The position numbers and the translations under genes are program-made. A stretch of 64,000 nt of DNA from Rhizophagus irregularis (Eukaryota > Glomeromycota > Glomeromycetes > Glomerales > Glomeraceae), in NCBI RefSeq assembly GCF_026210795.1, contig NC_089446.1:310001-374000 (forward strand), given 5' to 3'. Below are positions 1 through 58,675 of this stretch, in pieces (positions within the stretch are counted from its first letter, which is position 1; each line of letters opens with the position of its first letter). The notes below the pieces were generated by a model that saw only the letters and a program-made list of their open reading frames with translations, was not told the DNA's origin and made no database searches.

Positions 1-1935
1 ATAATTTATAATTTACCAGCTAAATAAAATAACAAATTTTAAATAAAGAATTTAGTTAGTTTAAATTATATGTAAATATTATATAAGTAAGTAATAATAG
101 AATTTAGTAAATAACTTATAGCTTACCAACTAAATAAAATTACATAATAATTTTTTAAATAAAAAAATTAGTTAGTTTAAATTGTATAAATACTATATAA
201 ATAAGTAATAATAGAATTAAATAAATAATTTATAACTTACGATCTATTTAAATAAAGAGTTTAAATTATTATAAATAAGTAATAATAGAATTAAATAAAT
301 AACTTATAATTTACCAACTACAAATTTTAGATAAAGAATTTAGTTAGTTTAAATTACATGTAAATATTATATAAATAAGTAATAATAGATTTAAATAAAT
401 AACTTACTCCCTACATTATTAAATAATTTTTAAATAAAGAATTTAGTTAGTTTAAATTACATGTAAATATTATATAAATAAGTAATAATAGAATTAAATA
501 AATATAGTCAACCCCCTCAGTTTATAGGCACCTTCTATATAAGAACTCTCCTTCTTAAGGCAACCATTTTTGTCCCAATTTTTATATATCTAAAATACCC
601 ATTCTATAATCACTTTATTAGTTATAAGTACAATCACACCAATTGTAAGTCCCATATTATAATAAATATATATAAAATTCCCTGCATAAGCACATAAATC
701 ACGTTATTTGATGTAATGACCAATAAAGTATGTTCTATGTAGTCTGCACTCTGAACTCAATGGTAGGAAAAGTTTTATTTTTCAAAATATTCCATAATAT
801 CTTTAACAGATAAATAATTTTAAGCATATTTTTACATTGCATATTCATTTATATATGGGAGTACTGGATTAATCTTCATTATAATCACGCCATTGGGTGG
901 TCTCAAGGGGTGTGATTATAGAGGGGGTTGAATGTAACTTATAACTTACGTTCTATTTAAATAAAGAGTTTTAAATTATATGTAAATATTATATAAATAA
1001 GTAATAAACTAATAATAGAATTAAATAAATAACTTATAACTTACGATCTATTTAAACAAAGAATTTAGTTGGTTTAAATCATATGTAAATATTATATAAA
1101 TAAGTAAAAATAGAATTAAACAAATTACTTATAACTTACCAACTAAATAAAATTACAAATATTAAATAAAAAATTTAATTAGTTTTAATTATATGTAAAA
1201 ATAAGTAAGAATAGAATTAAATAAATAACTTACGCCCTACATTATTAGATAATTTTTTAAATAAAGAATTTAGTTAGTTTAAATTATATGTAAATATTAC
1301 ATAAATAAGTAAGAATAGAATTAAATAAATAACTTACACCCTATATTATTAAATGATATTTTAAATAAAGAATTTAGTTAGTTTAAATTATATGTAAATA
1401 TTACATAAATAAGTAATAATAGAATTAAATAAATATCGTATAGCTTACCAACTAAATAAAATTACAAAATAATTTTTTAAATGATAAAGAATTTAGTTTG
1501 TTTAAATTATATAAATAGTAGAAATATAGATATATCTTACACCCTGTAGTGTTATTAATTATTAATTGGTTAGATATAAACATAATATAAAAGTATTCAC
1601 TGTAAATTAAATGTATTACTAACAATCTAGTTATTTATGAGAATATAATTAGTTAAGTTATATAAAATATTAAATAAACGAATATAATATATATTGTAAC
1701 TTACCATCTGTAATATAATTGTAATATAACACATTGTTAAATAGTTATTTAAACAAAGAATTTAGTTATTTGAATGTTATGTAAAAAAAAAATAAAGATT
1801 TAAATAACTGAATAACTTACTAACTATAGTATTATTAATTATTAATTGAATTATTAAGTTTACATAAAATAATAAATAAGTATTTCCATTATTATTTAAT
1901 TATAAGTAACTAAATAACTTATTAACTTACGAGCT
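1..1935 (-). repeat. Tandem array of intron-like units separated by triplets (left array)
   Basis: On the minus strand each unit runs from a GTAAG-type donor through a TTTAAACTAAC-like branch site to AG, then three bases, then the next donor. Triplets (minus sense): CTC 1931-1933, TTA 1821-1823, ATG 1705-1707, ATT 1624-1626, GGT 1541-1543, TTG 1449-1451, GGT 1338-1340, GGC 1234-1236, TTG 1140-1142, ATC 1045-1047, AAC 950-952, GGA 408-410, TTG 315-317, ATC 241-243, TTG 127-129, CTG 17-19. Units in the middle are near-identical to each other. The first five each have their own intron sequence, shared with the other two loci. Confidence 0.9.
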
Positions 1936-2265
1936 GAATTATTTAATATAATTTTATATTATATATAGTTAGTTTAAATTATATGTATAATTTTATAGAG
2001 TATAATTATAGATAGTATTTTAATATCTCAGTTAGTTTAATATACCTTTAGACTCCTCAATACTACATCCTTTAAATTTTTCAATAATATTTTCTCCGAA
2101 TTCTTCTGTGTTATTTCCTTTAGATTCTTCAATAAGCAATTTAAATAGAAGTGAAAAATAATAAGAGTTTATTATATTGTAAATTTGTTAAAAATTTTAT
2201 AGTTCTAATTTTATTAAATATTCTTGTTATATATGATTTTTACCATTATCATTTCTATAAGCCAT
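1..2265 (-). CDS. 5' part of TKL-kinase-family gene with single-codon exons (partial, runs off left edge)
   Basis: Exon 1 is 2244-2265 (22 nt, ATG start, encodes MAYRNDN, ends in phase 1 before GTAAAA). Exon 2 is probably 2046-2126 (81 nt, acidic and Ser-rich, ending IEESK, donor GTATAT). It uses a weak AAG acceptor but keeps phase. Sixteen 3-nt putative exons follow down to position 17, separated by intron-like units. Exon 1, exon 2 and the first triplets match the 8810 and 58675 loci in order and phase, so a kinase domain is expected beyond base 1. The concatenated triplets read ALNDWFGWLDQRIDLA without a stop. What is seen: splice-like signals and phase. What is inferred: that they are used. 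The gene could also be a decayed copy, since one donor is GTTAGT and an element sits in one intron. Confidence 0.55.
505..934. mobile_element. MITE with TA target duplication inside an intron unit
   Basis: The ends TCAACCCCCTC (508-518) and GAGGGGGTTGA (921-931) are perfect 11-bp inverted repeats, each set a few bases inside a TA dinucleotide (503-504 and 935-936). Removing the insert restores the normal array unit. It lies about 15 bases inside the donor of the intron after the AAC triplet and lengthens that intron to about 537 bases. It has no coding capacity. The TA duplication suggests a Tc1/mariner-type non-autonomous element. Confidence 0.75.
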
Positions 2266-3930: not shown

Positions 3931-4096
3931 AAGTTTCAGTAGGCGATTTGGACTTTAGAGACGGTAAGTCTCACAACATTTTGTTGTGAAACTTACATTT
4001 GAATTTATTTTTTCTAATAGAAATGCCTTTTAACATTTCTTTTTAATATATTTTTTTTTATTTTATATTTAATATAATTAATTTTTTTTTTAATTA

Positions 4097-4903: not shown

Positions 4904-4939
4904 ATATTATTATGGCAAGCCGTACTGGTCAAAAGGTTG

Positions 4940-5165
4940 ATAACTTTTCATCATGTTTTTATGATGATTTTTCATCATGTTTCATGATAACTTTTCATCA
5001 TGTTTCATGATGACTTTTCATCATGTTTTATGATAACTTTTCATCATGTTGACATGATGACTTTTCATCATGTTGATCATATTTTTCATCATATTTTATG
5101 ATGTTTTTCACCATGTGACATGAAATTTTTTCATCATGTGTTGAATAATCTTCATCATGTTTCCT
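4940..5165. repeat. Subterminal TTTTCATCATGTT tandem repeats (left TIR)
   Basis: About ten copies of a 17-22 base unit, GATGACTTTTCATCATGTT with variants. The mirror array is at about 8450-8670 in the right TIR. Such subterminal arrays are where transposases often bind; that role is inferred. Confidence 0.75.
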
Positions 5166-5780: not shown

Positions 5781-7341
5781 CCCTATAAGAAATATGTATA
5801 CAGAAAGGATACGTTTTGTATACATTTTATGTACGTTTCTATAGATTCCGTATACAAATTCCGTATATTTAATAAGCAATTCATTTTTGAACATTTTTAA
5901 AAAAACTAATGTATATGAAGTGTATACGGAAAAAATTAATCATACGGAATTTTTAAACTTAACAGTTAATATTTTTAGAAAATAATCTTACAAAAATCTC
6001 GTATCATAACACGAGATCACGTGATTATTTATTGTTTGTTATGATACGTTTTTTGTTTTTTATATAAACCCTTACTTTGATGAGTTTGATCTTCCGATCT
6101 TCCTTTCTGTCTTCCCTTCCTTCTCTTTTTCTCTTGTCTTATTTTTGTTATTTTTTCTAAATTTTTCTTCTTTTTTCGTCACCCTCCTTTTAAAAAAAAA
6201 TTTTTTTTTCATACCTCACTTTAAAAATTTTTTTTCATCACTCTCCTTTAAAAAAAAAATTGTTTTTGATTTTATTCTTTTATTCCCACTCTTCTTTTTT
6301 TTTAAAAAAAATTTTCTTCTTTCTATTTCTATTTCCTCTTTATAAAAAATTTTTTATTTTTCTGACTTTGACGTCGTCTCTTTAAAAAAAAAATTTTTTT
6401 TAACTTTCCTAACTTCGTTACCCTCTTTTTAAAAAAATATTTCTTTTTTTGATTTATTCTTTATTCCCCTTTCTTTTTTATTTATATTTATCCCTTTTTT
6501 TATTTCATAGGCCAGCAGATTTTTTTTGTGAGAAGATTCAGTTTCTTTTTTCTTTTTTGTAGATCAGTTTGGGAGTCTTTTCCTTTCCTTTTTGTAGGAT
6601 TGTTCAAGATTTTTTTCTTTTTTTAGGTCAGTTTAAATTTCATTTTTTTTTTTGTAAGTTGGGTTCAGATTCTTTTCTTTTTGTAGGTTGTTTCAGTTTT
6701 GTTGCTTCAGAGTCTTCTTTTTTTGTAGGTTAGTTTTGGATTTATTTTGTTGTTTTGGTTTCTTTTTCATCAGATACTCCATAATTCTTTTCATTTATGT
6801 AGGTCAGACATTCTGGAGTTCTCTTTCTTTTTTTGTAGGAATGCTGACCTTTGGTGACTTGGACGATTGCAGATATTATATATGAAGGGGGATTTTGTTT
6901 CCAATTAAGTTAGACGTTCTTATGTTTCTTTTTTTGTTTTTTTTAGGTTGTTTGACTCCAAATGAACCTGAACTTATAGATAATTTTGGTTGCAATAGGT
7001 GGTTTTAATGAGGAGGGAATTTTCATAATGTATTTGTATTTTGTTTATTTTTTATTTTTTATTTAATTTAATAAAGTAAAATTAGATTTATGTAAATATA
7101 ATTATAGTAAACTGTAATACAAATAGTAAATTCAGTGACCAAATCGTATAAATTTTGTGATAAAATCAGTGATCAAATCATGTAAATTCCATATGAATTC
7201 TGTGCAAATTCTGTATCCAAACCATATATTTAGTGATACAGAATTGTGCATTTTTCCGTATCCTATTATGATACGTTATTTCTAAAGAAAAAAAAATTAT
7301 ATAAAAACTTTATAAAAAACGTATCCAATTTTTTTATAGGG
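5781..7341. mobile_element. Nested 1.56 kb element with CCCTATAA ends and ATG target duplication
   Basis: It interrupts a GTTCGTATGGGATATTTT repeat of the outer element. The left flank ends ATG (5778-5780) and the right flank resumes ATG (7342-7344). The ends are CCCTATAAG... and ...TTTATAGGG. GGATACGTTTT recurs inverted just inside both ends (5808-5818, 7316-7326). A 9-bp inverted pair GTATCATAA/TTATGATAC at 6001-6049 precedes a TATATAAA box near 6060, followed by a pyrimidine-rich leader, which looks promoter-like. No transposase is seen. Confidence 0.65.
6500..6965 (+). repeat. Degenerate tandem units ending in TTTTTTGTAGG
   Basis: Seven to eight imperfect copies of a ~55-65 base unit: a T/C-rich run, TTTTGTAGGT, then CAGTTTGGA-like. 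Each copy resembles a polypyrimidine tract plus 3' splice acceptor. The Phe-rich frames at 6145-6345 and 6688-6885 are composition artefacts. Confidence 0.5.
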
Positions 7342-8449: not shown

Positions 8450-8672
8450 GGAAACATGATGAAGATTATTCAACACATGATGAAAAAATTTCATGTCACA
8501 TGGTGAAAAACATCATAAAATATGATGAAAAATATGATCAACATGATGAAAAGTCATCATGTCAACATGATGAAAAGTTATCATAAAACATGATGAAAAG
8601 TCATCATGAAACATGATGAAAAGTTATCATGAAACATGATGAAAAATCATCATAAAACATGATAAAAAGTTA
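8450..8672. repeat. Subterminal AACATGATGAAAA tandem repeats (right TIR)
   Basis: Inverted counterpart of the array at 4940-5165, in the same order read inward from the right end. The close match of the two TIRs suggests recent activity or gene conversion between arms. Confidence 0.75.
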
Positions 8673-8809
8673 TCAACCTTTTGACTTAGTACGGCTTGCC
8701 ATATATTATTACCATATATATTACCATATACAGTATACCTATACTAACAAAGGCGTTTAATAATAATATTATTTTTTCCAGTCAGAGAGAATTTTAATAT
8801 TATATAGTA

Positions 8810-11546
8810 ATGGCTCTCAATAATGATAAAGGTAATAACATATTACATATATATAGTATAAATATTTAATACAATTAGAATAATACTTCTAAACAAATTT
8901 ATTAATATAATAAAACTAGTTTCTGGTAATATTGAATTTGAAGGAAGCAGCACTAAAGAATTTGAAGGAAGTGTCTCTGAGGAATTTAAAGGAAGTGACT
9001 CTGAGGAATTTGAAAAAAGTAGTATCAAGGAATCTAAAGGTATATTAAACATGCTAAAATATTAAATTTTTATTTTTAAATAGTACATTTAAATACTATT
9101 TATAATTATACCTTACATATAAAATATAATTTAAACTAACATATTATACGAAAATAATATTAAATAATTTAGCTCGTAAGTTAATAGGTTATATTGTAAT
9201 TGAATAATAATAGAATTACTTATCATTTTTATTACATTTCATGTAATTAAATAATTTTATTTAATGATTAATATAATACTATAGTCAGTAAGTTATTAGT
9301 TATTTAAATCTTTATTTCTTTACTTCATTTTATTTATTTTACATAAAATTCAAATAACTAAATTCTTTATTTAATTAATTATTTATTAATTAATTGTATT
9401 ACAGATGGTAAGTAAGTTATAATATCATATTTTATTGGTTTAATATTTTATATAACTCACAATTATATTCTTAATTTAAATAACCAGATTGTAAGTGATA
9501 TACTTAATTTACATTAAATACTTTTGTATTATATTTATATTTAACTAATAATAATTAATTAATAATACTAGGGTGTAAGTTATAGTAAATATCTATTTCT
9601 ATTATTTATAAATAATTTAAGCTAACAAAATTCTTTATTTAAAAAATTATTTTGTAACTTTTTTAGTTGGTAAGTTATAAGTTATTTATTAAATTCTATT
9701 ATTAATTATTTATATAATATTTACATATAATTTAAACTAACTAAATCCTTTATTTAAATAGATCGTAAGTTATAAATTTATTTAATTCTATTATTATTTA
9801 GTATTTATATAATATTTACATATAATTTAAACTAACTGAATTTTTATTTAAACATTATTTAATAATATAGGGCGTAAGTTATTTATTTAATTCTATTATT
9901 ACTTATTATTGGTGTAATATTTACATATAATTTAAACTAACATTTAAAAATTATTTTTAATAATATAGGGTGTAAATTACTATTTATTTAATTCTATTAT
10001 TACTTTATTTATATGATATTTATATATAATTTAAACTAACTAAATTCTTTATTTATAAAAATTATTTAATAATATAGCTTGTAAGTTATTTGTTATTTCT
10101 ATTGTTATATATTTATAAATATTTATTTGTTAATTGAATTCTTTCATATAAAATTTCTGTTATTTTAGTTGGTAAGTTATGAAAAATGAAATATGAGTTA
10201 TTATTATATTCTTATATAAAAACTAAGACATATAGTATATTAAATTTCTATTTAAATTTTAGAGTAAGTATTGATTTTAATCTTAAATTTTAGTGTAATT
10301 TTTAATATAAACTTTCATAATAATATTAATTACTATCTAAATTTATAGATTTGGAAAAAGTGGAAATACAATTATGGATAATTTTATTTTGGAAAAAAAA
10401 TTAAAATGGATTCCTTATGATAAATTTAGAAATGTTGAATATCTTGATAAAGGAGGATTTGGTACTATATACAAAGCTATTTGGTTTTATGATGATAAAG
10501 ATAATGAAGTAATTCTTAAATGTTATAATAATTTAAGTGACAATTTAAATGAATTTTTAAACGAAGTATGATAATATATTGTTTATTTTTTAATTTAAAT
10601 TATAATTTATTTATATTAATATATTATTATTATTATTTTATAGTGGAAATATCATAGAAGTTGTTTAAGTTCATATGATATTATTTATTTTTATGGGTTT
10701 ACAAAAGATCTAAATACTTTGGAATATATGGCGGTAATGGATTATGCAAACAAAGGTAATTTAAGAGGAAATTTAACAAGAATAATCAAAAGTGATTGGA
10801 ATCAAAAATTATATATGTTATATGAAATTATTTCTGGACTTGATGACATACATAACCAAGATCTTATTCATTGTGATTTTCATGATGGTAATATTTTAAA
10901 TCATAATGAGAGTAAAATTTATATTTGTGATTTAGGATTATGTAAACCTGTAAAATCATTTTTGAAAAAATATGATATTTGTGGTGTTATACCATTTATG
11001 GCACCTGAAGTTTTAAGGGGCAAATCTTATACTCCAGCTAGTGATATATATAGTTTTTCTATGATTATGTGGGAATTTACATCTGGGATACCACCATTTA
11101 ATAATATAGCACATGATTTTCAACTTAGTTTAAATATTTGTAAAGGTGAACGTCCTGAAATTATTGAAAATACTCCACAATGTTATGTAGATTTAATGAA
11201 AAGATGTTGGAATGAAGATTCGTCAAAAAGACCATCATCTGAAGAAGTGTTTGATATTATTCATAAATGGATTTTTCGTCCAGATAAAGTGAAAGTTAAA
11301 GATATTAATGAAGAATTAAAATGCAATATTATGGAATTTATAAATGCACCAATTGGACATAACAATAATCTTACTACCAAATCTCATCCACAAGCATATT
11401 ACACAAGTCGCTTACTTGATTTTACTAGTAAAAAATTGAATGAAATTCTTGAAATTGAAGATTCACAAACTTATCAAGCAAGCTATTCTTCTACTGGTAT
11501 GACTGAAGATTTGGATGATTGTATAATTAAAGATATGAGTAATTAG
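8810..11546 (+). CDS. TKL-type protein kinase with micro-exon array in its 5' half
   Basis: Model: exon 1 8810-8831 (MALNNDK), exon 2 8920-9039 (acidic EFEGS repeats), eleven 3-nt exons and one 1-nt exon between 9173 and 10263, then 10349-10565 and 10644-11546. The sum is 1296 nt, 431 residues plus stop, in frame throughout. The kinase domain shows a GGFGTIYKA glycine loop, the VILK lysine (residue 116), HCDFHDGNIL (catalytic Asp 209), DLG (227), APEVLRG and DIYSFSMIMWE, so it should be an active Ser/Thr or dual-specificity kinase. The intron 10566-10643 sits at the same place in the copy at 56714-56628. If the upstream part is untranslated, an ATG at 10374 would give a kinase lacking the N-terminal 67 residues. 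Substrate unknown. In arbuscular mycorrhizal fungi this kinase type is greatly expanded. Confidence 0.8.
9040..10348 (+). repeat. Array of 13 introns separated by eleven triplets and one single base
   Basis: Triplets: CTC 9173-9175, TCA 9285-9287, ATG 9405-9407, ATT 9488-9490, GGT 9572-9574, TTG 9667-9669, ATC 9762-9764, GGC 9871-9873, GGT 9969-9971, CTT 10078-10080, TTG 10169-10171, then A at 10263. Eleven of the twelve donors after them are GTAAGT and one is GTAAAT. Intron lengths are 80-133. Most carry a CTAAC branch-like motif 20-60 bases before the AG. Exon 1 sets phase 1, giving the peptide ALNDWFDRRSF and then Glu across the last junctions. Joining exon 2 straight to 10349 would be out of frame. 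A second possible single-base unit (T at 10294) has a weak donor and is not used in this model. Confidence 0.85.
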
Positions 11547-20939: not shown

Positions 20940-22952
20940 TCAAATTATACAATCCAAACACTCAGAATTATTTTGATATAAAATTTCAGTAAGCAAGCGG
21001 CTTGTATAATATGCTTGTGGATGAGTTTGTAAAACAGAAATATTATCTTGTTCTAGTGTCAAAACACTATTTGCTTTTATAAATTCATACATATCATTTT
21101 TTAATTGATTATCAATATTAGGAACTTCATATCTTGGTTCATCTTCACCATTTAATTTATAATATTCATTAACACATCTAAGCCATTCAGATATAGTATT
21201 TTCAATAATTACTATATTGGTCTTTTGGAAGGGTCTGAATCCCAGCATTTTTTCATAACATTTTGGAGTATTTTTTATAATTACAGGGCGATCTCCTTCA
21301 CAAATACTTAAAATAAGTTCAACATCATGAGCTTTATTATTAAATGGAGGAATACCTGATGTAAATTCCCACATCATCATTGAAAAACTATAGATATCAC
21401 TTGCTGGAGTATAAGGGTTGTTTCTTAATATTTCAGGTGCCATATAAGGTATAATTCCATAAACTTTATCAATTTTATCATCAGAATTTTGTATAGGTTT
21501 GCATAATCCTAAATCAATAATATATATTTCATTATAATCATCTGATATTAAGATATTACCATCATGAAAATCACAATGAGTAAGTTCTGATTCATGTATT
21601 ACTTTAAGTCCTGAAATAATTTTTTTCAATAATTGCAATTTAGTTTGCCATTTAAATTTAACTATATTAAACATTTTTTCAAACTTCCTTTTTTTGCATA
21701 ACTCATTATTATCACATAATTTAAATTATTTGGATCTTGGGAAATTCCAAAGAATTGAATAAATTTTGAAAATGATTTTTTCTGACAATTATAATGATGT
21801 TTCCACTATATACAGTAAATATTTAAAATTATTAATTTATAAGATAAAATAAAATATACAATTAGTACCTAATAAATAAAAATACTATACCTCGCTCATC
21901 TAAAAATTTATCACTTAAACTTGATGAATTATTAAGATTTTTAATAATAACTTCATATTCAGTCCATCTATTCCATTGTTGTTCATCAAAGTTCAAACTA
22001 TCAATAGGTCCATCTAACCAGATGGCTCTAAAATTTCACTAAATCCTCCTTTATCATAATAATTAATATTATTCAATTTATTATAAGGTATCAATTCTAA
22101 AACTTCATAATTACTTTTAGCTAGCTTCTTGAATAAATTTATCAATAAATTTATTTTTACTAGTCCATTTTGAAAAATCTTACTGAAATTGTTTAATATT
22201 ACATTGTTGGCACCATTTGTAATCAATATATGGTTGATTGCATTCCTTACATAAGTTGTTAATTTAAAATTATCAGAAGTCATTTTGTGCCAATAAAATG
22301 CTTTTTCCAAATTTTTCTCTATTCCTTCACTATATTCATAACATAATAAGGCAAGACTGTGCATTGATTGTTCATTGCCCTTCTCTGCTGCTTTCTGATA
22401 CCAGTAAAAAGCCATTTCCTAATCCTTCTCTGTCCCTTCACCATTGTAGTATTGTAAGGCAAGACTGTGCATTGACATTTTATCACCCTTCTCTGCCACT
22501 TTCTGAAACCAGTGAAAGGCCATTCCCAAGTCCTTCTCTGTTCCTTTACCATTTTTGTAATGTAAGGCAAGATTGTGCATTGATTCTTCATGACCCTTCT
22601 CTGCCGCTTTCTGAAACCAGTAAAAGGCCATTCCCAAGTCCTTCTCTGTCCCTTCACCATCATAGTATTGAAAGGCAAGATTGTGCATTGATTCTTCATG
22701 ACCCTTCTCTGCCGCTTTCTGAAACCAGTGAAAGGCCATTCCCAAGTCCTTCTCTATTCCTTCACCATTGTAGTATTGTAAGGCAAGAATATGCATTGAC
22801 CCTTCATCACCCTTCTCTGCTGATTTTTCTTTTTCTAACCAATTAATGTTATCACTTGAATCTTTGATATTAGTACAAGTTAATATTTTTAATAATTTTT
22901 TTAACCAATTAATGTTATTACTTGAATCTTTAATATTAGTGGAAGTTGACAT
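20940..22952 (-). pseudogene. Sel1-repeat TKL kinase, disrupted
   Basis: Starts ATG at 22950-22952. A 17-residue segment (TNIKDSSNNINWL-like) is duplicated at the N-terminus. Five 36-residue Sel1 repeats follow (consensus AEKG..SMH.LALQYY.GEG.EKDLGMAF.WFQKA). Next come a linker, a kinase glycine loop (YYDKGGFSEI), an intron at about 21891-21812, and the rest of a kinase domain (HCDFHDGNIL, DLGLCKP, APEILRN, DIYSFSMMMWE). Lesions seen: TAG in repeat 4 at 22419-22421 where other repeats have TTG; a one-base loss in a T run at ~22030 just after the glycine loop; an extra short block before the intron; a frame shift near 21675; and a local shift at 21190-21245 that garbles the KKCWDSDPSKRP region. 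The gene cannot give a full kinase as read. Confidence 0.82.
22305..22835 (-). repeat. Five 108-bp tandem Sel1 units
   Basis: The units keep very high nucleotide identity, which implies recent expansion or gene conversion. The antisense frames at 22298-22846 are shadows of this periodicity. Confidence 0.85.
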
Positions 22953-23559
22953 TATTAACAAATAGTTTTATTTGTTGACAATTTAAAAAATTTAAATTCC
23001 TAAATGGTACATTCCAAAAAGGAAGGGTCCTTTTTCAATACTGTATATGCTATGTTTCACTGCGCTGTTGTACATTCACCGCATTTCATTGCATTGATTA
23101 TAAGGTTATTTATTACAACTACAGCAGGCTATTGAGTACGGTTACGTTATTTGTCACACCATATACTCACGTCTCACTAACATGTGATTACTGCGCCATT
23201 GCCTTATATAGTAATCCGCAGAAACACGTGATCATGTCACTTCCTTATAGTAATTCCGCAGCAAGTCACGTGATAGTGAGTACGTGAGTACGCGGCTGTA
23301 GTCGTAATAAGTTTGCAGTTCATTATAACAAAATCATGTCATTTTCTTACGAATAACGGTTGTTTATATAAAGATTTTGGAAAATTGGATGATTTACATA
23401 CAGTATAATCCGAATTGACTGAAATTGCATAATAAAATTTTCTAACTATAAATATATTAGCGTACTTAAATTCATATGTATAAATTATTACATAAACCAA
23501 AGTTATTTTTATTAAAGTCCTACTTTGTTTAAGTATAATTTAATTGCCGATCAATGAAT
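22953..23559. other. Upstream region of the Sel1-kinase pseudogene
   Basis: GC content is somewhat higher at 23040-23300, with CACGTGAT and related CACGTGA motifs (23227, 23272) and repeated TAGTAATYCGCAG (23209, 23248). These E-box-like CACGTG motifs may be regulatory; this is inferred. No gene. Confidence 0.35.
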
Positions 23560-37402: not shown

Positions 37403-39016
37403 TTAGTCATCATTATCATCATCTGTTAATAATAAAACATTACATTATTATTTTACATCATAAAATTAATATCTTAAATATAAAGTAGATTATATTTACC
37501 TTCTGACTTTGATGTGCAAGGAACCTCTAAGTTAATTAATTGAGAATCTTGACAACCTATTAAATTAAATAAAGTTTTAATTATTTAATAAAATTTAAAA
37601 AATATAATATAGTAAAATGCAATACCTTCATTATCTTCTTCATTAAGATATGTAGTAGCAATAAAAGATGAATTAATGGGTTTTGACACATTACTGAGTG
37701 TAAATGCTCTACTAGTATAAATAGCATCAGGTTTCTTTTCATATGAGGTTGAAATATTTGGTATTTCTTTATCAGCTTCTTCAAATACAGCTTTAACTTC
37801 TTCTTTTTTATATCCATATTTTTCATCTTCATCTAAATCCCTAAGATAATTATCCCAACAATCTAATATGTTAAATAATTCATTGGCTGTCGGCCTTTGA
37901 TTTGGATTAGCATTCATACATCTATAAGCTAATTTCTTATAAATTTCAGGAGTTCCTTTTCCAAATTCTGGTCTGAGTCCATTACATATTTCTAATGCTA
38001 AGCTATTATCATGATTTCTTTTATAAAAAGGAGGTTTTCCAGATGATAATTCAGCCATAACTACACCAAAACTATAAATATCTGAAGATAATGTATATGG
38101 TTCTCCATTTAAAACTTCTGGAGCAATATATGGCAAAACACCAACTATTTTATTACTATCTGATGATTTCTGTTCATTTGATGGTCTAGATAATCCAAAA
38201 TCTGAAATATAAGAACCATTACTAGTATTTAATATATTTCCACTATGAAAATCTTTATGAAAATATCCTAATTCATGTAAATTACTAAGGTCCCTTGCTG
38301 TTAAGTATAAATAGGTCACTTTTTTATTCCATAAAATTTTGTTAAAATTGCTTGAAAGAACATTTCTCAAATTTCCATCATCTGCATATTGCATAACCAT
38401 CATAATTTCTTCAGTTTCTGGATCTTTAGTTATTCCATAAAATTTTAAAGAATCTTCTTGTAAGCAATTTAATTTCCAATGTGTTTTAAGCTATTGTACA
38501 ATTAAAATAAATTAAATAAATTTTAATATTTTTTTAAAATTAAAATAAAAAAAATACCTCATTTAAAAAATCAGCTGACATATTCTGCGATCCATTTAGC
38601 CTTTTCAAGGCAACTTTCATGGATTCAGGTTCTTTTTTTATCCAATTTCCATCATCTTTAATGTATTTTGCTATACCATCAATCCAAGTTGCAGAATACA
38701 CTTTTGCAAATCCACCTTCACCTATTTGTTTCATATCTTCAAATCTATCAAATGGAACCCATTCGAGAAATGATGGGACATATTCATCACCAATATATTT
38801 CAAACGTACACTATAAATCGAATCCTTGATAAGATTATCAATATCATCATTTCCACTGGTCCATCCTTCAATTATGCAACGAGGAACACATTCTTTACAC
38901 CAACATTTTCTGGGTGGATTATAACAATTTTCATGATTAATTTTTGATGAATTTGGATTTTTATCAGAAATATTTAATTCATTAAATTCAGTTACTATTT
39001 CATTAATAAAATTCAT
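37403..39016 (-). CDS. TKL-type protein kinase, four exons, intact
   Basis: Exons 38558-39016, 37626-38490, 37500-37556 and 37403-37422. All have GT-AG borders and join in frame (1401 nt, 466 residues). The N-terminus has a Cys cluster (residues 31, 38, 40, 43, 47), then GWTSGNDDID. The kinase: glycine loop GEGGFAKVYSA (99-109), VALK Lys138, HKD catalytic Asp233 in KDFHSGNIL, DFG Asp250, APEVLNG, DIYSFGVVMAEL. The tail holds DAIYTSRAF, a motif shared by this fungal kinase family. The last exon is only 20 nt and gives an acidic DDDNDD end. A frame running on at 37585-37832 is intron read-through. Intact and likely active. Its micro-exon-array relatives share the W-x-S/D-G-N motif before the kinase. 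Confidence 0.9.
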
Positions 39017-40554
39017 TTTTAAATTTATGTTTTGTTAGTATTTTGCTTCAAATTTGCGAAACGTAAAAAAAAAAAATTTGGCGTTACTTTTATATTTATA
39101 TTCAATGAAGATAAAAAAGGAATTATTTCAACCAAAATTGTCATTGACATAATTGTGATACATCACAGTATCACAATCAACACAAATGTCCGGCGGATGT
39201 CCGTCTGACACGTGACGAAGTACAACAATAAAACTTTTAAACAGCACTTCGGACTTAATAACGGTTTCCGTTTCCTAGATCATTCCAATAGTTAAATTTT
39301 ATTAAAAGTCTACTAATTTTGTTGATAAGTGAAATGTAGCACTAAAAAATTTGTTATTTGAATATTAAGTTATATCTTAATTTGCTTTCCTATATTTAAA
39401 TTAATAAATGCTACAAAATCTTTTTAAATGTAGGAAATAAGGGTAACATTCATTATTTATTATACTTATTACACTTAATGTACTGTACATAAAAACCAAT
39501 AAGAAACAACTTCTTTTTAAAATATTTAATGTGATACTTCTAATTTTATATTGTATTTATTATTAAAGTTTGAACGATTATTATATCCGTATTTTTTCCT
39601 AATAGAAAAGGAAAAGCAAGAAATTATTTAAAAACTATAAAATTTATTACGTATATATTTAATTTTATATTAACATTTTTTATTATTTATATTAATACAT
39701 TAAAATAAATAAGTTTATCTGATGAATAATAAAATTGAATAATATAATCATAATTAAGAGATTCTTTCATTTCTTTGAAAAAAAATTTCATCACAAAAGA
39801 GTTTGATAAGAAAAAAAAAAAATTTTTTTGAAAATAATCACGTTATGGTTGTTGATTGACAAGAAGTTACACAAGAAACTTATGATTTATATAATTATGT
39901 AATTGAGTTATTTTATTTCGACACAGATCAATATACATTGTAATGCCGTAATATACCTAAATTTATTAAGAATTAGTGTATAAAAATTTAGTATTTTAAA
40001 ATTGAATGACGTTATAAATGTAACGTCCGAGATGACGTTAAACTTAATTGAATAATTGAGTCAAGTGATTAGGCTGCGGATTATGATGAAAGGGTTAATG
40101 ATTCGTATCACCTTATGCCATGAAGATCATTTTATCGATGATGTCAAATAGAGGATCATGAGTAATGAATAAGGAACCAATGAAAATGAAGCATTAGAAA
40201 AAGCATAAAAAGGGTACGGATTGACTTAATAAAAATAAGTTACGAATTTTGAAGAATGGTTAAGTATTACAATTTACCCTTAGAATAGTAATAATTCGAT
40301 TCTTTTAGCATTTTTCTTATGATGAAAAATTGCCACATTAATTAAATTAATGGAATTAAAGGTTACTAATATGGGGAAACTATCGCAGTTTGAAATTTTG
40401 ACATAAATATTTAATTATCAAGCACATTATTGTATTTATTTATATTATTAATAAAGTATTATTTTGTCAATATGAAAATGGGTATGTCGATTCTTACCTT
40501 ATATGTTTAAGACATATCAATTTTCTGATCTGTCCTATACTGATACCCTTTCAT
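39017..40554. other. Intergenic upstream of kinase gene and of the 40.5 kb remnant
   Basis: No gene. 39165-39250 is GC-richer (TGTCCGGCGGATGTCCGTC). The rest is AT-rich without repeats of note. Confidence 0.4.
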
Positions 40555-55769: not shown

Positions 55770-55934
55770 CTAATGATTCATATCATCGTTAATTATGCAA
55801 TCATCCAAATTTTCACTTTTAAGAATTTCATTCAATTCTTTACTACTAAAATCAAGTAAGCGACTTGTATAACATGCTTGTGGATAAGATTCAATAGTAA
55901 AATTGGTTTTCTGCCCAATTGGTGCATTTATAAA

Positions 55935-56906
55935 TTATATAACACTGCGTTTTAATTCTTCATTAATTTTCTTTCCTCTAGGCTGAATAATCCATTTTTC
56001 AATAATATCAGACACTTCATTAGCAGATGGCCTTTTTAATGGATCCTCATCCCAACATTTTTTCATTAAATCTGCATAACATTGTGGAGTATTTTCAATA
56101 ATTTCAGGACGTTCGCCTTTACAAATACTTAAACTAAGTTGAAAATCATGTTCTCTATTATTAAATGGTGGTACCCCAGATGTAAATTCCCACATAATCA
56201 TAGAAAAACTATATATATCACTAGCTGGAATATAAGATTTTCCTCTTAAAACTTCAGGTGCCATAAATGGTATAACACCATAAATATCATATTTTTTCAA
56301 AGATGATTTTATAGGTCGACATAATCCCAAATCACTAATATAAAAGTTATCCTCATCCTCATTATTGTGATTTAAAATATTGCCATCATGAAAATCACAA
56401 TGAATAAGATTTTGATTATGTATAACACTAAGTCCAGAAATAACTTTATATAATATATCTAATCTTTGATTCCAATTATATTTGATTATTATTGTTAAGT
56501 TTCCTCTTAAATTACCTTTGTTTGCATAATCCATTACTACCATATATTTTAAAGTATCTGGATTTTTTGTAAACCCATGAAAATTAATAATATTACCTGT
56601 ACCTAAACAGCTTTTATGATATTTCCACTATAAAAAATAATAGCATATTAGTATAAATACTGTAAGTTATAATTTAAATTAAAAAAATAATAAATAATGA
56701 TTTTATCGTCATACTTCATTTAAAAATTCATTTAAGTTTTCATTTAAGTTATTGAGACATTTAAGAATTACTTTACTATTTTCATTATCATTTAACCAAA
56801 TAGCTCTGTATATAGTACCAAATCCTCCTTTATCAAGATATTCAACATTTTTAAGTTTATCATAAGGAATCCATTTTAAATCTCCTTCCGAAATAAAGTG
56901 ATCCAT
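55935..56906 (-). CDS. TKL-type protein kinase, copy 2 of the micro-exon locus
   Basis: Exons 56715-56906 and 55935-56627 (intron 87 nt, same position as in the 8810 gene) give 294 residues from an ATG at 56904-56906. The domain is complete: GGFGTIYRA, VILK, HCDFHDGNIL, DLGLCRP, APEVLRG, DIYSFSMIMWE, KKCWDEDPLKRPS. The first kinase exon begins at 56930 and reads IWKDGNEIMD in the kinase frame. The frame stops at TAA 55935-55937 where copy 1 reads GAA. The tail beyond it stays open to TAG at 55770-55772 (SYPQACYTSRLLDF), so the stop is recent. Upstream micro-exons deliver phase 2 to 56930 but the kinase frame needs phase 0. So copy 2 is either translated from the internal ATG or decaying. Confidence 0.75.
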
Positions 56907-56930
56907 AATTTCATTTCCATCTTTCCAAAT

Positions 56931-58675
56931 CTATAAATTTAAATAATTAAAATTATACTGAAATTTATATTAAAAGTTATAAGATTAAAATCAAGACTTA
57001 CTCTAAAATTTAAATAGAAATTTAATATAATATCTGTTTTAGTATTTGTGTAAGTATATATAATAATAACCTATATTTCCCAACTTACTAACTAAAATAA
57101 CAGAAATTTTAAATGAAAAAATTCAATTAAAAGATAAGTATTTTATGAAATATATAACAATAGAAACAACAAATAACTTACAAGCTGTATTATTAAATAA
57201 TTTTTTAAATAAAGAATTTAGTTAGTTTAAATTATATATAAATATTGTATAAATAAGTAATAGAATTAAATAAATAACTTATAACTTACATCCTATTTAA
57301 ATAAAAAATTTGGTTAGTTTAAATTATATGTAAACATTATATAAATAAGTAATAATAGAATTAAATAAATAACTTATAACTTACTATCTATTTAAATAAA
57401 GAATTCAGTCAGTTTAAATTGTATGTAAATATTATATAAATAAAGAAATTAAATTACAAATTTTAAATAAAGAATTTAGTTAGTTTAATTATATGTAAAT
57501 ACTATATAAATAAGTAATAATAGAATTAAATAAATAACTTATAACTTACATTCTATTTAAATAAAGAATTTAGTTAGTTTAAATTATATGTAAATATTAT
57601 ATAAACAAGTAATAATAGAATTAAATAAATAACTTATAACTTACGAACTAAATAAAATTACAAAATAATTTATTAAATAAAGAATTTAGTTAGTTTAAAT
57701 TAGATGCATATATTATATAAATAAGTAATAATAGAATTAAATAAATAACTCACTCCCTATATTATTTAAAAGAATTTAGTTAGTTTAAATTTATGTAAAT
57801 ATTATAAATAAATAATAATAGAATTAAATAAATAACTTACTCCCTATATTATTAAATAAAGAATTTAGTTAGTTTAAATTATATGTGAATATTGTAAATA
57901 AGTAATAATAGAAATAAATAACTTACTCCCTATATTATTAAATAATTTTTTTAAATAAAGAATTTAGTAAGTTTAAATTATATGTAAATATTATTACTTA
58001 TTACATACTAAATAAGTATATAAATAAATATAATAGAATTAAATAAATAACTTATAACTTACCAACCAAATAAAATTAACAAAATATTTTTTTAAATAAA
58101 GAATTTAGTTGGTTTAAATTATATAGATAATAGAAATATAGATTTAACTTACACCCTGTAGTGTTATTAATTATTAATTAGTTAGTATAAATATAATGCA
58201 AAAGTATTTACTGTAAATTAAATGTATTACTTACAATCTAGTTATTTATAAGAATATAATTAGTTGATTTATATAAAATATTAGATAAACGAATATAATA
58301 TATATTGTAACTTACCATCTGTAATATAATTGTAATATAATCAATTATTAAATAAAGAATTTAGTTACTTGAATATAGAATATAATATAAAATAAATAAA
58401 GATTTAAATAACTGAATAACTTACTAACTAGAGTATTATTATTTATTAAATGAATTATATAGTTTACATAAAATATAACAAGATTAATAAATATATTCAT
58501 TATTATTTCATTATAAATAACTTATTAACTTACGAGCTAAATTATTTGTATATTTTATATAGTTAGTTTAAATTATATTTGTATATTATTGTAAATTTGT
58601 TAAAAAATTTTAGAATTTTAATTGTATTAAATACTGTTAAATATGATTTTTACCATTATCATTGCTATAAACCAT
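56931..58675 (-). repeat. Right array: exon 1, fourteen readable triplets and a single base between introns
   Basis: Exon 1 is 58654-58675 (22 nt, MVYSNDN). Triplets in minus sense: CTC 58534-58536, TTA 58425-58427, ATG 58316-58318, ATT 58235-58237, GGT 58153-58155, (TTG 58063-58065 with acceptor mutated to GG), GGA 57927-57929, GGA 57841-57843, GGA 57754-57756, TTC 57645-57647, AAT 57550-57552, ATA 57385-57387, GAT 57290-57292, CTT 57182-57184, TTA 57089-57091, then A at 57002. One unit near 57450 is degenerate. The acidic exon 2 of the other copies is absent, which leaves phase unchanged. Donors are GTAAGT except one GTGAGT. Confidence 0.88.

What the first reader, a model, noticed from the sequence alone, without database searches (positions are those of the whole stretch)
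9040..10348. A kinase gene apparently built with eleven single-codon (3-nt) exons
Between an acidic exon and the kinase exons lie 13 consecutive intron-sized units. Each ends in AG and is followed by exactly three bases, then a new donor (GTAAGT in 11 of 12). Exon 1 (22 nt) and exon 2 (120 nt) fix phase 1. The triplets then read ALNDWFDRRSF and enter the kinase frame correctly over 1296 nt. Genes with micro-exons are known (schistosome MEG genes, aphid bicycle genes), but I know of no array of uniform one-codon exons. Alternatives: recursive splicing stations, or one large intron carrying fossil splice sites.
Basis: partly seen in the sequence, partly recalled or inferred. Interest (0 to 1): 0.96.

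Follow-up and report, generated by a model that had tools for sequence, protein, structure and literature searches.

The report
Kinase genes with single-codon exon arrays
In a root-symbiotic fungus, many kinase genes appear to spell part of their protein one codon at a time, each codon being its own three-base exon between nearly identical short introns; nothing like these long uniform arrays turned up in the papers searched.

Summary
The window lies in a 146.7 Mb assembly that I take to be Rhizophagus irregularis. Between acidic exon 2 (ends 9039) and kinase exon 10349 lie 13 introns, eleven 3-nt exons and one 1-nt exon (10263). Spliced, they give an intact 431-aa kinase frame. The window holds two more arrays. 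Genome-wide AG-N3-GTAAGTTAT occurs 4186 times, against 162 for N2 and 129 for N4: perhaps 6,000 single-codon exons in some 250 arrays (estimate). Parsed chains reach 46 units. No RNA could be examined, but sequence evolution bears on coding. Across 580 consecutive triplet junctions in 27 chains, phase 1 gives 0 stops; shuffled order gives 22.0 (minimum 9 of 5000). Skip-one joins give 21 against 20.5 expected. So the selected product is the full, ordered peptide, which speaks against fossil splice sites, plain recursive splicing and mutually exclusive exons. In near-identical units of one array, triplets differ about six times more than flanking intron blocks, suggesting diversification of the peptide. 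Ordered inclusion is very likely; the diversification mechanism is inferred. Existing Nanopore cDNA can test it.

The parts
8810..8831 (+). Exon 1, 22 nt, MALNNDK plus 1 nt (phase 1)
   Evidence: same N-terminus in public R. irregularis kinase proteins P0001, P0004, P0005
8920..9039 (+). Exon 2, 120 nt, acidic EFEGSS repeats, phase 1 in and out
   Evidence: 24-nt tandem repeat 8934-9014; nearly the same peptide in P0001
9173..9175 (+). single-codon exon 1, CTC
   Evidence: AG|CTC|GTAAGT
9285..9287 (+). single-codon exon 2, TCA
9405..9407 (+). single-codon exon 3, ATG (followed by GTAAGTAAGT; public model P0001 reads DGK, which would fit use of the second donor here; inferred)
9488..9490 (+). 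single-codon exon 4, ATT
9572..9574 (+). single-codon exon 5, GGT
9667..9669 (+). single-codon exon 6, TTG
9762..9764 (+). single-codon exon 7, ATC
9871..9873 (+). single-codon exon 8, GGC
9969..9971 (+). single-codon exon 9, GGT (donor GTAAAT)
10078..10080 (+). single-codon exon 10, CTT
10169..10171 (+). single-codon exon 11, TTG
10263..10263 (+). 1-nt exon A (TTTTAG|A|GTAAGT); needed for the kinase frame
   Evidence: a 1-nt exon (18 A, 1 T) 76-95 nt after the last triplet in 19 of 27 chains; public models P0002, P0003, P0052 read ...LEFGKSGN, which suggests copies where A and ATTTGG are contiguous (inferred)
10349..10565 (+). Kinase exon, enters as (G)A|A TTT GGA
10644..11546 (+). Last kinase exon to TAG
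   Evidence: spliced protein hits PF07714 at 1.1e-40
55770..58675 (-). Second array gene: exon 1 from 58675, triplets 58536 to 57091, kinase exons 56930-55773. Looks decayed (unit 6 acceptor AG is GG, indel in the kinase entry exon, reading frame broken near the 3' end)
1..2265 (-). Third array gene, running off the left edge into L039: exon 1, exon 2, 11 triplets (1933 to 950), an insert at about 503-936, further triplets, then 37 more units and kinase exons in L039

Best explanation
The region is the coding N-terminal part of a kinase gene of R. irregularis, split into eleven one-codon exons and a one-nucleotide exon by short, similar U2-type introns. It is one of roughly 250 such arrays (estimate). 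Splicing (inferred): because two splice sites lie 3 nt apart, exon definition is hard to imagine; each intron of about 94 nt is probably recognised on its own (strong GTAAGT donor, CTAA-type branch sequence, TAG acceptor) and removed stepwise. Each step brings the next GTAAGT up against the growing exon, so the ladder deposits one codon per step. The codons are included in order and read in phase 1, giving ALNDWF...RSF-E before FGKSGN and the kinase domain. Evolution (inferred): the unit (codon plus stock intron) is frame-neutral, so units can be duplicated, lost or exchanged by recombination in the introns; the ends of the peptide are conserved, while the middle varies in length and sequence under diversification. 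Shown here by sequence: exact 3-nt size, genome-wide number, phase, ordered full inclusion as the product that selection has protected, link to kinases, excess change in triplets. Inferred: order of splicing, recombination as the engine, and a recognition or signalling role of the variable peptide.
For: Exact size: N3 4186 against N2 162 and N4 129 genome-wide. Contingency: a triplet ending in T is followed by one starting AA, AG or GA in 0 of 163 cases, other triplets in 87 of 417 (Fisher p 1.9e-14; distinct pairs 0 of 73 against 53 of 197, p 6e-9). Full ordered inclusion: skip-one joins 21 stops of 533 against 20.5, skip-two 22 of 487 against 19.1, so only consecutive joins are protected. 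In the stricter regex parse 5 stops appeared, all among 60 over-long gaps; each of those 5 gaps holds an AG-N3-GT candidate unit near its middle (a candidate exists in 44 of the 60). Codon-usage fit is best in phase 1 (-5.58 against -6.21 and -6.31 bits). Of 12 chains whose first triplet starts with CT, the fourth triplet is ATT in 11 and the fifth GGT in 10. Link to kinases: in 7 of 7 array loci found by the DNA pattern (L031, L032, L034-L038) a kinase exon lies downstream on the same strand, for L038 beyond the stretch fetched; L044-L058 were chosen through kinase hits and do not count for this. 8 of 27 chains gave an open exon1-exon2-array frame, three of them with unresolved gaps or none of the kinase part tested. 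A retained intron brings an in-frame stop in 576 of 580. Variability: in same-array unit pairs with near-identical flanks, triplet sites differ 0.302 against 0.015-0.099 (mean 0.053) for flanking 3-nt blocks; N1 0.147, N2 0.303, N3 0.456; triplets exceed flanks in 18 of 21 arrays with such pairs.
Against: No RNA or peptide evidence. No public protein matched the joined phase-1 array peptides (691 candidates, none at E<=0.1), and the public models that I looked at skip the array or start downstream of it. No retrocopy of the spliced product was found. One fetched array (L060) has a 2-nt unit AG|GG|GTAAGT that would break the frame, and array C in the window looks decayed. Two of 21 over-long gaps in the matrix parse (in L037 and L039) keep a stop unless a weak-donor unit is accepted. 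Skipping the whole array except the 1-nt exon also stays in frame, so a short isoform is not excluded. In the variability test two arrays (L036, L037) supply 181 of 327 pairs, and in 3 of 21 arrays (1-2 pairs each) triplets do not exceed flanks.
Confidence: 0.88

Rival explanations
1. One large intron with a tandem repeat (minisatellite) that carries fossil or decoy splice sites; exon 2 is joined directly to the downstream exons and the triplets are never in mRNA.
For: Skipping all triplets but keeping the A keeps the frame (G+A+ATTTGG). The introns are repeat-like. Public model P0001 keeps only a small piece.
Against: Untranslated triplets cannot avoid stops that form only when triplets about 95 nt apart are joined: 0 of 580 against 22.0 expected, Fisher p 1.9e-14. 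Triplets also fit real codon usage best in phase 1.
Confidence: 0.04
2. Recursive-splicing stations that shorten a long intron and leave nothing (or only transiently three bases) in the mRNA.
For: Acceptor immediately followed by a donor is the architecture of ratchet points; stepwise removal is likely part of the true mechanism.
Against: Known ratchet points are AG|GT with no bases between (recalled); AG-N0-GTAAGT is not enriched (4, control 3). The total distance here is only about 1.3 kb. Stop avoidance between consecutive triplets.
Confidence: 0.03
3. Alternative or mutually exclusive codon choice: each transcript includes one or a subset of the codons, giving combinatorial protein isoforms.
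For: The triplets are symmetrical units, so most subsets stay in frame; it would suit variable codons.
Against: Skip-one and skip-two joins carry stops at the shuffled rate (21 against 20.5 and 22 against 19.1), so skipped products have not been protected by selection. N3 is T in 27% of triplets and T joined to A-ATTTGG would give TAA; the 19 last triplets with a 1-nt exon behind them are 16 TTG, 2 TTA and 1 TCG.
Confidence: 0.05
4. Coding but without diversification: triplets look variable only because introns are homogenised by conversion or constrained by splicing, while codons drift.
For: Blocks next to the splice sites are the most constrained (0.015-0.018); ongoing homogenisation lowers intron differences; pairs within an array are not independent and two arrays dominate.
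Against: Blocks further from the splice sites also differ only 0.02-0.10 against 0.30 for triplets. Conversion tracts should carry the triplets along.
Confidence: 0.35

Closest known systems
Micro-exon genes of schistosomes (MEG)
   Same: Many tiny exons in one gene; the abstract start of PMC10526429 gives exons of 3-81 bp regularly interspersed with long introns of up to 5 kbp (seen in a search listing).
   Different: Exons there have mixed sizes, introns are long and proteins are secreted (same abstract start). Here the exons are uniformly 3 nt, the introns are about 94 nt and alike, and the array sits in front of a kinase domain.
Single very small exons: 3-bp exon of Drosophila homothorax (PMC7392893), single-nucleotide exon of Arabidopsis (PMC4674806), one-nucleotide exon in Fusarium CYP621A (PMC12940212); titles and abstract starts in listings
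   Same: Show that spliceosomes can include exons of 1-3 nt, also in a fungus.
   Different: Single exons in single genes or gene groups, not arrays of tens across many genes.
Recursive splicing (abstract start of PMC6224609, listings; Drosophila ratchet points recalled)
   Same: A donor regenerated right at the junction; stepwise removal.
   Different: Here every step is inferred to leave one codon that is translated.
Introners (recalled) and repeated stwintrons of Hypoxylaceae (PMC8469720, PMC9024468, PMC12403724; abstract starts in the listing)
   Same: Families of similar fungal introns, consecutive splicing reactions.
   Different: No nesting here; introns are stacked every 3 nt in one gene family.
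Expanded R. irregularis tyrosine-kinase-motif genes (PF07714; passages of PMC6123716)
   Same: The spliced product hits PF07714.
   Different: The array-coded N-terminus is absent from the public models that I looked at.

Membership tests
Protein kinase, PF07714/PF00069 | Near-complete kinase domain match of the spliced product | tested here: met
   PK_Tyr_Ser-Thr 1.1e-40, residues 89-334 of 431, profile 5-255 of 258
Micro-exon gene (as a kind, not the schistosome families) | Several consecutive frame-preserving exons of a few nt in one gene | tested here: met
   11 predicted exons of 3 nt in the finding, up to 46 in a chain
Micro-exon gene (as a kind, not the schistosome families) | Inclusion of the exons in mRNA | not testable with these tools
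   no reads; supported indirectly by stop avoidance
Schistosome MEG families | Protein homology and secreted product | tested here: not met
   product is a kinase; the 72 listed homologues are all Rhizophagus records, 70 of them with PF07714. Secretion itself was not tested
Recursive-splicing ratchet point | Zero-length exon AG|GT | tested here: not met
   k=0 4 cases (control 3) against k=3 292
Introner-type repeated introns | Many near-identical introns in one genome | tested here: met
   739 unit pairs from different arrays with 3 or fewer mismatches in 60 flank bases; 4186 strict 5' ends
Introner-type repeated introns | Insertion at scattered sites with target-site duplication or terminal inverted repeats | not tested
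   fixed 3-nt spacing argues for unit duplication instead; no empty site was looked for beyond
Stwintron | One intron interrupts a splice element of another | tested here: not met
   each parsed intron has its own donor and acceptor, three bases between neighbours

The most novel reading that the evidence does not exclude
A codon-cassette diversity system: hundreds of kinases carry a hypervariable peptide written one codon per exon on interchangeable stock introns. Duplication, loss or exchange of a unit always adds, removes or swaps whole codons in frame, and the base before each donor (first base of the next codon) is the most diversified, so the fungus evolves a large repertoire of kinase-linked recognition or targeting peptides, perhaps for self/non-self or host recognition.
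Probability: 0.4. Interest if true: 0.97.

Novelty: new variant of a known kind. Interest (0 to 1): 0.95.

Why it matters
If the arrays are spliced as the sequence implies, a spliceosome removes up to more than 40 consecutive introns separated by single codons, far beyond the usual limits on exon size, and does so with enough fidelity for selection to act on the joined codons. It would mean that the N-termini of many kinases in a model arbuscular mycorrhizal fungus are missing from current annotation. It would offer a natural test bed for intron definition, order of intron removal, intron multiplication and for a new way of generating protein diversity. The key claim can be tested with data that already exist.

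Tried and rejected
Fossil repeat in one intron, recursive stations, mutually exclusive codons: rejected by the junction tests. Phase 0 or phase 2 reading: phase 2 has 96 stops; phase 0 has worse codon fit, though it too has few stops (1 TGA among 601 strict units; TA- and TG-starting triplets are rare in general), so phase 0 is rejected on order dependence and codon usage, not on stops. Retrocopies or uninterrupted ancestors: searched with two 27-nt spliced-junction patterns at up to 3 mismatches; 0 hits for the first, 1 for the second, at the kinase exon of L055, where the match runs into intron-like sequence. Seven kinase hits that seemed to reach into the array peptide were fetched; the extra match was intron read-through, and all seven have arrays of their own. 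Public models P0044, P0045, P0030, P0015 and P0009 have odd low-complexity N-termini that resemble mis-phased triplets; P0044 was traced to C15:4511221 (99%) but its N-terminus could not be reproduced from that array in phase 0 or 1, P0045 had no exact locus (best 92%), and the other three were not traced, so I draw nothing from them. Intron core in viral contigs and prokaryote genomes: no exact match. Whole-intron identity against triplet identity was spoiled by gapped alignments and replaced. Literature: searches (open-licence PMC only) showed no report of such arrays, but some listed only the best rows (20 of 64, 20 of 89, 15 of 178, 8 of 30); bioRxiv as a library and most subscription papers are not held.

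Rows dropped before counts: of the 28 fetched loci L031-L058 and the window, five (L033, L040-L043) had no array of 4 or more units; L001-L030 overlap them and were not used; L059 and L060 came later and are not in the statistics; L039 was cut to its first 7500-7501 bases to avoid counting the window twice; one search gave 34 chains of which 7 overlapping ones were dropped (27 chains, 628 units); 21 joins across gaps over 140 nt, 2 of them with a stop, are not in the 580.
Full report
WHERE. The window is C18:310001-374000 of a 146,748,485-base, 32-contig assembly. A database protein called OCT59_011841 [Rhizophagus irregularis] lies on a contig of 6,138,810 bases, exactly the length of C2 here. 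The Manley et al. assembly of R. irregularis DAOM197198 has 32 scaffolds and 146,773,001 bases (GCA_026210795.1; passages of PMC10234402). I take the window to come from that assembly; the small length difference was not explained.

OBSERVATION. Read base by base, exon 1 (8810-8831) and exon 2 (8920-9039) are followed by 13 introns. Eleven of them end in AG and are followed by exactly three bases and a new donor. The twelfth is followed by a single A (10263) and GTAAGT, the thirteenth by the kinase exon at 10349. Spliced, the gene is one 1296-nt frame coding 431 residues with a near-complete kinase domain (PF07714, 1.1e-40). Without the A, or with A plus T, the frame breaks. AGNNNGTAAGT occurs 34 times in the window against 1.28 expected, 33 of them in three arrays: this one, one at 57091-58536 minus and one at 1-1933 minus that continues in the neighbouring sequence (L039).

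HOW MANY. Genome-wide AG-N3-GTAAGTTAT: 2069+2117, reversed-pattern control 146+126. With two bases: 162, control 164. With four: 129, control 228. So the three-base class is raised about 30-fold over its neighbours; other lengths were not counted genome-wide, except AGNGTAAGTATTG for the 1-nt exon, which is not raised in that strict form (18, control 34). In parsed arrays the strict string covers 395 of 628 units; with a background of 130-270 this suggests some 6,000-6,400 single-codon exons, and at about 23 units per parsed chain roughly 250-280 arrays. These totals are estimates; several sampled chains are cut by the fetched ends, and the sample was partly chosen by the strict string.

SAMPLE. 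Array loci were taken from the first 100 listed places and the window's left neighbour (13 regions), from 8 of the best kinase-exon hits and from 7 hits that seemed to reach into the array. Five regions without an array of at least 4 units fell out. A splice-site matrix that does not look at the triplets parsed 27 non-overlapping chains, 628 units. Introns average 94.0 nt (sd 10.5), lengths modulo 3 are 197/186/197, GC is 11.5%, a branch-like CTAAC, CTAAA or CTAAT is seen in 500 of 580, and 576 of 580 would bring an in-frame stop if retained.

ARE THEY TRANSLATED? If consecutive triplets are joined in phase 1, codons form from the last base of one triplet and the first two of the next, which lie about 95 nt apart in DNA. 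Over 580 such joins there are 0 stops; shuffling the order of triplets within uninterrupted runs gives 22.0 (sd 3.6; minimum 9 of 5000). Phase 2 gives 96 stops against 84.4. As a contingency table, T-ending triplets are never followed by AA-, AG- or GA-starting triplets (0 of 163), others are in 87 of 417 (p 1.9e-14; distinct pairs p 6e-9). In a stricter regex parse, 5 stops did appear, all among 60 joins whose spacing was 136-300 nt, and each of these five gaps holds a further AG-N3-GT candidate with a less usual donor (a candidate is present in 44 of the 60 gaps). The matrix parse accepted three of the five and left two gaps (L037, L039) with a stop unless the weak unit is accepted. Codon usage fits phase 1 best. 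The loci are paralogues, so junctions are not fully independent; the distinct-pair test is the answer to that.

ALL OR SOME? If codons were often skipped, skip joins should also be free of stops. They are not: one skipped, 21 stops of 533 against 20.5 expected; two skipped, 22 of 487 against 19.1. So the product that selection has protected is the full, ordered peptide. A form that skips all triplets would also be in frame and cannot be excluded from sequence.

ANATOMY OF THE FAMILY. For eight of 27 chains an open frame from an ATG exon through a second exon into the array was found, usually with more than one possible exon 2 and in some chains across unresolved gaps; starts include MALNNDK and MAQSNDK. 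Among 12 chains whose first triplet starts with CT, the peptide begins ALNDW, ALEDW, ALTNW, AFNDW or similar in most (ATT fourth in 11, GGT fifth in 10). Array peptides usually end in SF, PF, AF or TF before E-FGKSGN. A 1-nt exon (18 A, 1 T) lies 76-95 nt after the last triplet in 19 of 27 chains, with a kinase-exon start found 70-94 nt further in 18 of the 19. A kinase exon lies downstream on the same strand in 7 of 7 array loci found by DNA pattern; for L038 it is at C2:708860, outside the stretch. Loci L044-L058 were chosen by kinase hits. Two other kinase-like stretches in the window (20943-21805 and 37588-39034, minus) have no strict unit near them.

VARIABLE CODONS ON STOCK INTRONS. Among unit pairs in the same array whose remaining flanks differ at 3 or fewer positions, the triplet differs at 30.2% of sites, flanking 3-nt blocks at 1.5-9.9%, mean 5.3%. 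The third base, just before the donor and first in the next codon, differs most (45.6%). Triplets exceed flanks in 18 of 21 arrays with such pairs; L036 and L037 supply 181 of 327 pairs. The first two bases go partly with the subtype of the flanking intron, so units look like shuffled subtypes rather than random insertions. I read this as diversification of the peptide on homogenised introns, probably by duplication and exchange within introns. That reading is inference; differing conversion or relaxed constraint is a real rival.

PUBLIC ANNOTATION. The nearest database protein (P0001, another R. irregularis record) has nearly the same exons 1-2 and kinase but reads ESK-DGK-FGKSGN, that is, perhaps a 7-base piece at the third unit instead of the array (the 7-base reading is my inference). 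Several models, including OCT59 ones (P0012, P0028, P0035, P0060), start at MDNF, below the array. No protein matched the joined array peptides. So nothing here confirms splicing independently.

LITERATURE. In open-licence PMC the searches listed no paper reporting arrays of single-codon exons or microexons in this fungus; several listings were capped. For PMC10234402 I saw passages (12 of 30 places, 12 of 17; 'microexon' does not occur in its main text), for PMC6123716 seven passages; neither was read whole. Known neighbours are listed under Closest known systems, from search listings unless marked recalled.

VERDICT. The finding is confirmed and greatly extended. Coding, ordered inclusion of the codons is very likely on evolutionary evidence (0.88). 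The splicing order and the purpose of the variable peptide are hypotheses.

Noticed in passing
window 503-936: An insert of about 420 bp inside the third array, with imperfect inverted ends (TATAGTCAACCCCCTC / GAGGGGGTTGAATGTA, 88%), looks like a small DNA transposon (MITE-like) landed in the array.
   Followed up: partly
window 55770-58675, minus: The second array gene in the window seems to be decaying: one acceptor AG is GG, the kinase entry exon has an indel relative to the first copy, and the kinase frame is broken at about 55935-55937; it also seems to lack exon 2.
   Followed up: partly
window 22014-22967, minus: 108-bp coding tandem repeat (units such as AFHWFQKAAEKGHEESMHNLAFQYYDGEGTEKDLGM) resembling Sel1 repeats (name recalled), near a kinase-like stretch at 20943-21805.
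   Followed up: no
window 4938-5163 and 8452-8675: Two tandem repeats of about 23 and 46 bp that are reverse complements in style (TGATAACTTTTCATCATGTTT and ACATGATGAAAAGTTATCA), upstream of array genes.
   Followed up: no
L060, C15:4511200-4515200, minus: A very regular array of mostly TTG, GGA and ATC units with repeated spacings 99/104/109/111/116, which looks recently expanded, and one 2-nt unit AG|GG|GTAAGT.
   Followed up: partly
P0009, P0015, P0030, P0044, P0045: Public Rhizophagus kinase models with odd low-complexity N-termini before FGKSGN or FGKSEN; possibly mis-phased single-codon exons, but P0044 could not be reproduced from its locus and the rest were not resolved.
   Followed up: partly
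window 8810-8831 and 9173-9490: Exon 1 reads MALNND and the start of the array reads ALND; a possible internal duplication or a coincidence.
   Followed up: no
window 3959-3969, plus: A lone AGACGGTAAGT outside the arrays, the only one of 34 strict hits not in a cluster; likely chance.
   Followed up: no
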